Shown here one piece after another: positions 29,081 through 31,819 of a DNA stretch of 56,771 bases; position 1 is the stretch's first letter, and each line of letters opens with the position of its first letter. The stretch spans positions 1 through 56,771 of the forward strand of contig JAAXHN010000043.1 of assembly GCA_012270885.1 (NCBI GenBank), in the 5' to 3' direction. This DNA comes from Acidimicrobiia bacterium (GTDB lineage: Bacteria; Actinomycetota; Acidimicrobiia; Spongiisociales; ZC4RG35). The notes below the pieces were generated by a model. It worked only from the letters and a program-made list of their open reading frames with translations. It ran no database searches and was not told the DNA's origin. The position numbers were made by a program, and so were the translations under genes.

Positions 29081-29116
29081 ATGGCCTTACAAGTAGAAAG
29101 GAGAGGCTATGGCTGA
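29081..29116 (+). CDS. possible 11-codon leader ORF (MALQVERRGYG) overlapping the BCCT start
   Basis: SD-like GAGGAAAGGAGG just upstream; stop at 29114-29116 overlaps BCCT start ATG at 29109. Confidence 0.3.
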   Translation: MALQVERRGYG

Positions 29117-30884
29117 TCAAGAGCATCACGAGGACCTTGACCTCACAGCCGTCGCCGAAGCCTATGAAAGCTGGGAAGAGGATGAGCACCGCCGCCGCGA
29201 GGCGGCCATCCGGGACCGTGCGGAATTCCAGGGTCTTCAAATCGATCCTGACATCGACTTCTATCCCGAGGTGGCCGACCGGGAACCCGGTGACAAGAAC
29301 ATAGTCAAATGGGGATTCGACATACATCCCCAGGTGACTTTCATCGCCGCCGGATTCCTGTTGCTCTTCATGGCCGCCACCCTGATCTTCCCCGATCAAG
29401 CGAGCGACGTCTTCGGCGCGATTCTCAACTTCATCAATGAGAAGGTGGGCTGGCTGTACATCATCTCATTCAATGTCTTCATCGGCGCGGCGCTCTATTT
29501 TGCGCTGGGCAGGTACGGCAAGATTCGATTAGGTGGCCCGGGATCCCTTCCGGAGTTCTCCACCGCCGCCTGGTACGCCATGCTGATCTCAGCCGGTTTG
29601 GGCATCGGATTGATGTTCTGGGGTGTGGCAGAACCGATCTACCACCTCACGTCGCCGCCTCCCTTCTTCGACGGAGAACCTCTGACGGCAGAGGCGCAGC
29701 GAGCCTCACTGGCGACCTCCTATCTCCACTGGGGGATTCATGGATGGGCGCTGTACGGTCTGGTCGCCCTGGCTCTGGGATTCTTCGCCTACAACCGAGG
29801 ACTCCCACTGACCTTCCGCTCGGTCTTCTATCCGATTCTCGGCCCGAGGATCTACGGCGGATGGGGCAACGCGATCGACATTCTCACCGTGGTGGCCACC
29901 CTCTTCGGACTCGCCACCTCGCTGGGATTCGGGGCCGGTCAGGCGGCCGCAGGGTTGAACAAGGTATTCGGCCTCCCCTCGGACACCTGGTTCCAGATCG
30001 TCCTCATCGCTTTCATCACCGGGTTGGCAACCATCTCGGTGGTCGCTGGTCTGGACGCAGGCGTGAAGAGGCTGAGCTCGATCAACGTATGGCTGGCCGC
30101 AGCGTTCCTAGTGTTCGTGATGTTGGTGGGTCCGACTCTGTTGGTCCTTTCGCTTTATGTCGAGAGCATCGGCGTCTACATCCAGATCCTGCCGGAGTTC
30201 TCCTTCTGGAACGCCGCCCTGGTCGAGACCCAGTGGCAGCAGTGGTGGACCATCTTCTATTGGGGATGGTGGATCTCATGGTCTCCCTTCGTAGGCATGT
30301 TCATCGCCCGAATCTCCAAGGGACGCTCGGTGCGGGAGATGATCCTCGGTGTGATCATCCTCCCCTGCCTCCTGTGCTTCCTGTGGTTCGCGGTGTTCGG
30401 CGGAGCGGCCATGAATCTGCAAATGACCGGCGAACTGGACGTCGCCACCGCGGTCAACGAAAATGTAGCGACCGCTCTGTTCGTGATGTTGGAGGCCTTC
30501 CCATGGACCTTCTTCGTCTCGATAATCGGCATTTTGCTGTTGGTTTCGTTCTTCGTCACCTCTTCGGACTCAGGGTCTCTGGTGGTTGACCACCTCACCT
30601 CAGGAGGAAAGCTAGACTCGCCCAAGCCCCAGCGGGTGTTCTGGGCCTTGATGGAAGGCGCAGTGGCGTGCGTGTTGCTGTTGGGAGGTGGCCTTTCGGC
30701 GCTCCAAACGGCCGCAGTGGCCACCGGACTGCCTTTCCTATTCGTTCTCCTGATCATGCTGTGGAGCCTCAAGAAGGCCTTCGACGAAGAACTCGACCTC
30801 CTGGAGAGTCACTACGACGAGGCCATCTTCAAAGACCAACACAGCGGCTTGCTTGAGAGGCTTGGCAAAGGAGGTGCAGAGTGA
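29109..30884 (+). CDS. BCCT-family (betaine/carnitine/choline) transporter with acidic N-terminal extension
   Basis: SAGLGIGLMFWGVAEP, LHWGIHGWALY, FYWGWWISWSPFVGMFIARISKGRSVRE. Confidence 0.97.
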   Translation: MADQEHHEDLDLTAVAEAYESWEEDEHRRREAAIRDRAEFQGLQIDPDIDFYPEVADREPGDKNIVKWGFDIHPQVTFIAAGFLLLFMAATLIFPDQASDVFGAILNFINEKVGWLYIISFNVFIGAALYFALGRYGKIRLGGPGSLPEFSTAAWYAMLISAGLGIGLMFWGVAEPIYHLTSPPPFFDGEPLTAEAQRASLATSYLHWGIHGWALYGLVALALGFFAYNRGLPLTFRSVFYPILGPRIYGGWGNAIDILTVVATLFGLATSLGFGAGQAAAGLNKVFGLPSDTWFQIVLIAFITGLATISVVAGLDAGVKRLSSINVWLAAAFLVFVMLVGPTLLVLSLYVESIGVYIQILPEFSFWNAALVETQWQQWWTIFYWGWWISWSPFVGMFIARISKGRSVREMILGVIILPCLLCFLWFAVFGGAAMNLQMTGELDVATAVNENVATALFVMLEAFPWTFFVSIIGILLLVSFFVTSSDSGSLVVDHLTSGGKLDSPKPQRVFWALMEGAVACVLLLGGGLSALQTAAVATGLPFLFVLLIMLWSLKKAFDEELDLLESHYDEAIFKDQHSGLLERLGKGGAE

Positions 30885-31819
30885 CGAAGAGATCGAACGT
30901 ACTGATTGCCGCTCTTGCGGCTTTCGTGCTGGTGCTTTCGGCCTGCGCCACCGAGGGTCTGGACCGGCCGGTGACGATTGCTCGGGCCGACTGGAGTTCG
31001 GGCCATATGCAGGCCGCCATCTACGCCCAGTTGATCGAGGAACTCGGACACGAGGTCACCGATCCCGCGTTGGCGGAACTCCAGCCCTTCTCCTTCTATC
31101 CGGCTTTGGCCGCCGCGCAGTACGACCTGTGGGCCAACGGCTGGTTCCCGAACCACGATATCTTCCTGGATGGGGAACTGGTGACCGGCCAGGCGGTGGA
31201 GTTGCCAATCGAACCCGTCGGCTATCAAGTAGCCAAGGGGGGCATTGAGGGCTTTATGGTCGACAAGGCCACGGCCGACCGATTGGGAATCACCTCCATG
31301 GCTGACGTAGCCGCCAACGCCGGCGTCTTCGACACCAACGGCAACGGCAGAGCCGACCTGATCGGATGTAACGCCGGATGGGGATGCCACACCTGGATCA
31401 ACGACCTGATCGCCGACGAGAGTTGGGGGGCCAACGTGGAGCAGATCTCCGGTAACTACGATGACCTGGTCCGAGGCGTCATCGACCGGGTGAATGCAGG
31501 TGAATCGGCATTGTTCTACGCCTATACGCCCAACTGGACCGCCGACTCCCTGGTGGATGGGCAGAATGCGTTGTGGGTGCACGAAGCCGCCGTCAACGAC
31601 ATCCGGGCGGTGGCTAACACCGACTTCCTGGATGACAACCCGGACATCCGCCGTCTGCTCGAAGTGGTGGCGATTCCGTTGAGCGACATCGCGGCTCAAA
31701 ACGCCAAGATGGCCGCAGCGGCTGAGTACTCCGACGCCGATGTGCAAGCCGACGCGGAAGCCTGGATAGCTGCCAACCGCGACAGGGTCGACAGTTGGCT
31801 GGCTATCGCCCGCGGCTGA
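30881..31819 (+). CDS. ProX/OpuAC-type glycine betaine-binding lipoprotein (GTG start, 4-nt overlap with BCCT)
   Basis: lipobox [35 protein letters not shown]; homologous to N-terminal domain of 26739..28823. Confidence 0.93.
   Translation: MTKRSNVLIAALAAFVLVLSACATEGLDRPVTIARADWSSGHMQAAIYAQLIEELGHEVTDPALAELQPFSFYPALAAAQYDLWANGWFPNHDIFLDGELVTGQAVELPIEPVGYQVAKGGIEGFMVDKATADRLGITSMADVAANAGVFDTNGNGRADLIGCNAGWGCHTWINDLIADESWGANVEQISGNYDDLVRGVIDRVNAGESALFYAYTPNWTADSLVDGQNALWVHEAAVNDIRAVANTDFLDDNPDIRRLLEVVAIPLSDIAAQNAKMAAAAEYSDADVQADAEAWIAANRDRVDSWLAIARG

What the first reader, a model, noticed from the sequence alone, without database searches (positions are those of the whole stretch)
29109..31819. 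BCCT transporter translationally coupled to its own ProX-type binding lipoprotein
Seen: the BCCT stop overlaps the GTG start of a ProX lipoprotein gene by 4 nt. BCCT carriers are secondary transporters and do not normally use a binding protein, and no OpuA/ProU ATPase or permease gene is in this window. The BCCT keeps the aromatic motifs typical of betaine carriers (HWGIHGWALY, WGWWISWSPFVGMF). Inference: a binding-protein-assisted BCCT (analogous in logic to TRAP/TTT systems), or a receptor that tunes the transporter or the adjacent channel.
Basis: partly seen in the sequence, partly recalled or inferred. Interest (0 to 1): 0.82.

Follow-up and report, generated by a model that had tools for sequence, protein, structure and literature searches.

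The report
Betaine carrier with dedicated binding protein

Summary
In detail: BCCT (29109-30884) and a ProX-type lipoprotein (30881-31819, GTG start) overlap by GTGA. This is a conserved arrangement, not a local accident.

In 138 genomes of the order, all 24 genomes with the orthologous BCCT (69% identity or more) have this SBP directly downstream. No member of that SBP lineage lies elsewhere. Three separate BCCT clades, in six phyla, carry a coupled OpuAC-family SBP. The SBPs come from at least four lineages (ProX-, OpuCC- and two OpuAC-type), and the overlap is exactly 4 nt in 41 of 56 sampled loci. Sister BCCTs carry different SBP types, so the SBP was swapped while the coupling stayed.

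Natural BCCT-OpuAC fusion proteins exist (nine clusters, two origins). Each has an extra transmembrane helix that would place the SBP outside the cell. Five pair-carrying genomes show no ProW-type permease, although the window's own genome does have a ProU-like ABC system.

Best explanation: a binding-protein-assisted, Na+-coupled BCCT for glycine-betaine-like solutes. Delivery and interaction are inferred; nothing here is biochemical. It works like TRAP, TTT or TAXI-GltS but belongs to none of them. BCCTs are LeuT-fold carriers, so this tests the published proposal that SBP-dependent secondary transport needs an elevator mechanism.

The parts
29109..30884 (+). BCCT secondary transporter gene, 591 aa; aromatic box W208/W213/Y216 and W387/W388/W391, Gly167 where choline carriers have Asp, Thr484-Ser485 of the Na2 site
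   Evidence: alignment to TmaT, BetT-type and BetP; invariance
30881..31819 (+). ProX-type (OpuAC family) substrate-binding lipoprotein, 312 aa, GTG start; cage residues W88, W167, Y215, H92 and C163/C169 align with E. coli ProX W65, W140, W188, H69 and C136/C142
   Evidence: (1r9l, E=1.7e-35), fold model, Foldseek top hit 1r9l
30881..30884 (+). GTGA start/stop overlap (translational coupling signal)
30869..30875 (+). Shine-Dalgarno AAGGAGG for the SBP gene, inside the last codons of the BCCT
26739..28823 (-). divergent neighbour: OpuAC domain fused to a GluR0-like ligand-gated channel with K+ filter TVGYGD; frequent but not obligatory partner of the pair

Best explanation
The two genes encode one uptake system. 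The membrane-anchored ProX-type lipoprotein captures a glycine-betaine-like compound outside the membrane and hands it to (or raises its local concentration at) the outward-open Na+-coupled BCCT carrier, giving a high-affinity secondary transporter without an ATPase. Shown here: the gene coupling, its conservation, its repeated independent origin, SBP exchange, and natural fusions with a topology-correct extra helix. Inferred from alignment: betaine-type pockets in both proteins, and Na+ coupling. Not shown: ligand identity, physical docking, and dependence of transport on the SBP.
For: (1) Unbiased co-occurrence: in 138 genomes of the order, all 24 SBP matches at 52% identity or more lie directly downstream of a BCCT, and all 24 BCCTs at 69% identity or more carry it; the next-best SBP matches fall to 47% or less. 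(2) The SBP tree puts BCCT-coupled SBPs in four clusters, each free of ABC- or channel-linked members; starred branches force at least 4 changes. (3) The BCCT tree shows three separate SBP-coupled clades; within the actinobacterial one, ProX-type and OpuCC-type subclades are sisters, i.e. the SBP was swapped at the same junction. (4) Cross-phylum coupling in Spirochaetota, Thermodesulfobacteriota, Gammaproteobacteria, Lentisphaerota, Verrucomicrobiota and Actinomycetota. (5) BCCT-OpuAC fusions P0124 and P0127-P0134, two origins, each with a TM helix between the domains preceded by positive residues; model helix 542-569. The other OpuAC-membrane fusions seen are to its established ABC permease and to the channel. 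(6) No ProW-type permease found in pair-carrying G384 (98% complete), G444 (96%), G115 (91%), G453 (87%) or G076 (82%); G076 has only one OpuAC gene, the coupled one. (7) Betaine-type pockets in both proteins.
Against: No biochemical data. The window's genome and all ten clade-B genomes tested also have ProW-type ABC systems. One clade member, G395/L058, kept the BCCT without an SBP nearby, and four clade-B BCCTs have another gene downstream, so the SBP is not indispensable in every lineage. In one Gammaproteobacterium (L251) a BCCT follows an ABC permease-SBP operon, so BCCT and ABC betaine genes can simply be co-transcribed. The fusion model has pTM 0.65, so it says nothing reliable about docking. 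Most BCCTs, including BetP and TmaT, work without an SBP.
Confidence: 0.62

Rival explanations
1. The lipoprotein is a ligand receptor that regulates the BCCT (or the adjacent OpuAC-channel) according to external betaine, and does not deliver substrate.
For: BCCTs are known to be regulated carriers (BetP osmosensing, established knowledge); other BCCTs sit beside or are fused to regulatory Usp domains; a channel bearing its own OpuAC domain is the frequent neighbour.
Against: The pair occurs without the channel near it in several loci. The SBP keeps the ligand-binding cage and is exchanged among SBP subtypes of different sequence, easier to reconcile with a capture role than with a specific regulatory interface. 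Usp partners are cytoplasmic, SBP partners external.
Confidence: 0.18
2. The lipoprotein is an extra receptor for a ProU/Opu ABC permease encoded elsewhere (as Pseudomonas Cbc recruits CaiX and BetX, recalled from the literature), and the BCCT is merely a co-regulated gene.
For: The window's genome has a complete ProU-like ABC system on C201; all ten clade-B genomes have ProW-type permeases; a permease-SBP-BCCT operon exists in L251.
Against: Five pair-carrying genomes have no ProW-type hit, though they are drafts. The genome's ABC system has its own SBP of a different subtype. BCCT-coupled SBPs form separate clusters. BCCT-OpuAC fusions would tie up the SBP on the carrier.
Confidence: 0.14
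3. Neighbourhood inertia: co-transcription of two independent betaine genes with no direct partnership.
For: Operons often group genes of one pathway (general knowledge); one permease-SBP-BCCT row exists.
Against: Repeated independent formation of the same BCCT-then-SBP order with start/stop overlap, and two independent gene fusions.
Confidence: 0.06

Closest known systems
BCCT family (TC 2.A.15): BetP, TmaT (8zw8), BetT, CaiT
   Same: Full PF02028 match; closest solved relative TmaT; aromatic boxes, betaine-type Gly and Na2 Thr-Ser conserved.
   Different: Has a dedicated, translationally coupled or fused external SBP; none is described for solved BCCTs.
E. coli ProX / OpuAC-family SBPs of ProU/OpuA ABC transporters
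   Same: Sequence (1r9l), fold and ligand cage; Trp188 is Tyr here.
   Different: Coupled to a secondary carrier, not to an ABC permease and ATPase.
TAXI-GltS of Bordetella pertussis (PMC12344293)
   Same: Same logic: SBP translationally coupled to, and in some species fused to, a Na+ symporter.
   Different: Unrelated SBP and carrier families; GltS is proposed to be an elevator, BCCT is a LeuT-fold carrier.
TRAP and TTT tripartite transporters
   Same: SBP plus ion-driven carrier.
   Different: Different membrane components (Dct/Tct families); no second small membrane subunit here.
Pseudomonas Cbc with multiple SBPs (from memory)
   Same: Extra OpuAC-type SBPs outside the core operon.
   Different: Those serve an ABC permease.

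Membership tests
BCCT transporter | Full-length PF02028 domain | tested here: met
   E=2.6e-186, positions 1-485 of 485
BCCT transporter | Aromatic substrate boxes (TM4 W/W/Y, TM8 WW-W) | tested here: met
   W208, W213, Y216, W387, W388, W391; invariant in 15 clade members
BCCT transporter | Ion-coupled betaine-type transport | not testable with these tools
   Only sequence signs: Gly167 (Asp in choline-type), Thr484-Ser485
ProX/OpuAC substrate-binding protein | PF04069 domain, ProX fold, quaternary-ammonium cage, lipid anchor | tested here: met
   one cage Trp is Tyr
ABC (ProU/Opu) importer | Permease and ATPase encoded with the SBP | tested here: not met
   None adjacent; none of Opu type in the window; no ProW-type permease found in five pair-carrying genomes
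TRAP / TTT transporter | Dct/Tct membrane subunits and DctP/TctC/TAXI SBP | tested here: not met
   Membrane part is BCCT, SBP is OpuAC
SBP-dependent secondary transporter (functional class) | SBP genetically coupled or fused to the carrier | tested here: met
SBP-dependent secondary transporter (functional class) | Transport depends on the SBP | not testable with these tools
   Needs reconstitution or deletion

The most novel reading that the evidence does not exclude
Probability: 0.4. Interest if true: 0.92.

Novelty: new variant of a known kind. Interest (0 to 1): 0.84.

Why it matters
A 2025 paper on TAXI-GltS (PMC12344293) states that TRAP, TTT and now GltS were the only secondary transporters known to work with an SBP. 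It notes that all appear to be elevators, suggests that some feature of the elevator mechanism may be required, and says that further classes are needed to test this. BCCTs are LeuT-fold carriers with solved structures (BetP, TmaT), so SBP-coupled and SBP-fused BCCTs make that question directly testable. It would also change how orphan ABC-annotated OpuAC proteins are read and suggest how ATP-free high-affinity osmolyte uptake evolves.

Tried and rejected
(a) The conserved N-terminal extension of the BCCT (invariant residues 30-74) looked like a possible partner signature, but alignments to haloarchaeal and desulfobacterial BCCTs without an SBP also start at residues 2-27, so it is not SBP-linked. 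(b) The channel as the true partner: rejected as a general explanation, because several loci have BCCT+ProX and no channel nearby. (c) Docking from the fusion model: pTM 0.65, no usable interface. (d) Frequency in Gammaproteobacteria: in 291 sampled genomes the only clade-B type BCCT-SBP pair found among the SBP matches was the starting genome itself, so that type is rare there. (e) Literature: ten searches of the open-access library found no report of an SBP-coupled or SBP-fused BCCT nor of the OpuAC-iGluR channel; most subscription papers and preprints are not covered.

Full report
Observation. The window holds a BCCT gene at 29109-30884 (+) and a ProX-type lipoprotein gene at 30881-31819 (+). 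They share GTGA: the BCCT stop TGA and the lipoprotein start GTG overlap by 4 nt, and AAGGAGG stands just upstream, inside the BCCT reading frame. Pfam gives BCCT over its full profile and OpuAC over its full profile.

What the proteins are. The closest solved relative of the BCCT is the Na+/trimethylamine symporter TmaT, then BetT-type and BetP. All aromatic-box residues that matter in TmaT (W146, W151, Y154, W325, W326, W329; PMC11708041) have counterparts here. The position that is Asp in choline carriers is Gly, as in BetP (3p03 is BetP-G153D with choline). The lipoprotein matches E. coli ProX (1r9l) by sequence and predicted fold. Trp65, Trp140, His69 and the Cys136/Cys142 pair are conserved, and Trp188 is Tyr215. 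A glycine-betaine-like ligand for both is therefore an inference from alignment.

Conservation, without sampling through the BCCT. A search of 138 genomes of the order with the SBP alone found 24 matches at 52% identity or more. Each lies directly beside the BCCT found independently, and every BCCT at 69% identity or more has it. The next SBP matches are at 47% or less: channels and ABC-linked or tandem copies. Across sampled loci the overlap is exactly 4 nt in 29 of 40 ProX-type, 4 of 4 OpuCC-type and 8 of 12 OpuAC-type pairs, against 2 of 61 sampled BCCTs without an SBP (close relatives are included).

Repeated origin. In Actinomycetota, BCCTs about 60% identical to the window's are coupled, with the same 4-nt overlap, to SBPs of the OpuCC/OsmF subtype. 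BCCTs of other clades (47-51% identical) are coupled to OpuAC-like SBPs in Spirochaetota, Thermodesulfobacteriota, Gammaproteobacteria (Halochromatium roseum, Thiorhodococcus mannitoliphagus), Lentisphaerota and Verrucomicrobiota, and in a further actinobacterial pair of loci. Trees (quick method, SH-aLRT support only) place BCCT-coupled SBPs in four separate clusters and SBP-coupled BCCTs in three. The ProX and OpuCC subclades of BCCT are sisters, so the binding protein was exchanged while the arrangement stayed. 'Clade B' below means the cross-phylum BCCT clade with OpuAC-like SBPs.

Fusions. A search for long BCCT proteins returned nine clusters with PF02028 followed by PF04069, 852-903 aa. 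All have one hydrophobic helix between the domains, preceded by Arg/Lys. This would carry the OpuAC domain from the cytoplasmic BCCT C-terminus to the outside, and the fold model shows that helix (542-569) before a well-predicted OpuAC domain. Eight form one clade and the ninth (Spirochaeta) nests among separately encoded spirochaete pairs, so fusion happened twice. A second search with the SBP part of a fusion found only BCCT fusions, ABC permease fusions (PF00528) and one OpuAC-only protein; the channel fusions came.

ABC rival. The window's genome has a ProU-like ABC system with its own SBP on C201, and ProX-type SBPs on C191 whose homologues in G109 lie by an Opu-type permease. So the lipoprotein could in principle serve an ABC permease here. 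However, G384, G444, G115, G453 and G076 carry the pair and show no ProW-type permease, only distant OpuC-type or weaker hits, and G076's single OpuAC gene is the BCCT-coupled one. These are draft genomes of 82-98% completeness. All ten clade-B genomes tested do have a ProW-type permease. One Gammaproteobacterium has permease-SBP-BCCT in a row, so co-regulation is real in places.

Exceptions. G395/L058 has the BCCT but no SBP downstream, and a few clade-B BCCTs (L108, L112, L122, L136) have another gene instead. The SBP can therefore be lost or replaced, which argues against strict dependence in every lineage.

Interpretation. I judge the pair a binding-protein-assisted BCCT (0.62), with a regulatory receptor (0.18) and an ABC accessory (0.14) as the main rivals. 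It works like TRAP, TTT and TAXI-GltS but fails the membership tests of those families. Its own parts are ordinary members of BCCT and OpuAC. The link matters because the TAXI-GltS authors suggest that an elevator mechanism may be a precondition for SBP dependence and call for further classes to test it (PMC12344293); BCCTs are LeuT-fold carriers (established knowledge).

Noticed in passing
26739-28823 (-): A ProX/OpuAC domain fused to a GluR0-like channel with K+ filter TVGYGD; 738 OpuAC-containing relatives passed the search, and it lies beside the BCCT-ProX pair in most order genomes. No report found. Possibly a betaine- and amino-acid-gated K+ channel of an osmoregulation module.
   Followed up: partly
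L081-L084, L144 (SBP after BCCT): The coupled SBP has an N-terminal transmembrane anchor instead of a lipobox, in a related Acidimicrobiia group.
   Followed up: partly
P0125, P0126, P0135; L091, L106, L107, L110, L111 and relatives: BCCTs fused to Usp domains or directly followed by a gene that looks Usp-like by eye in Bacteroidota and Balneolota.
   Followed up: no
P0003, P0004, P0008: Proteins of 714-788 aa whose only Pfam domain is OpuAC, probably tandem double binding proteins.
   Followed up: no
L046 (own genome contig C191), 1-1496: Two ProX-type SBP genes in tandem, the second an incomplete 101-aa frame; homologous clusters in G109 and G021 have three or more copies near an Opu-type permease.
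   Followed up: partly
L112, L122, L136: In clade-B BCCTs that lack the SBP, the next gene starts with a segment resembling a trypsin-like protease (GTAFxVHxxGYLLTAAH), judged by eye.
   Followed up: no
L251: ABC permease, OpuAC SBP and BCCT in one row in a Gammaproteobacterium.
   Followed up: no
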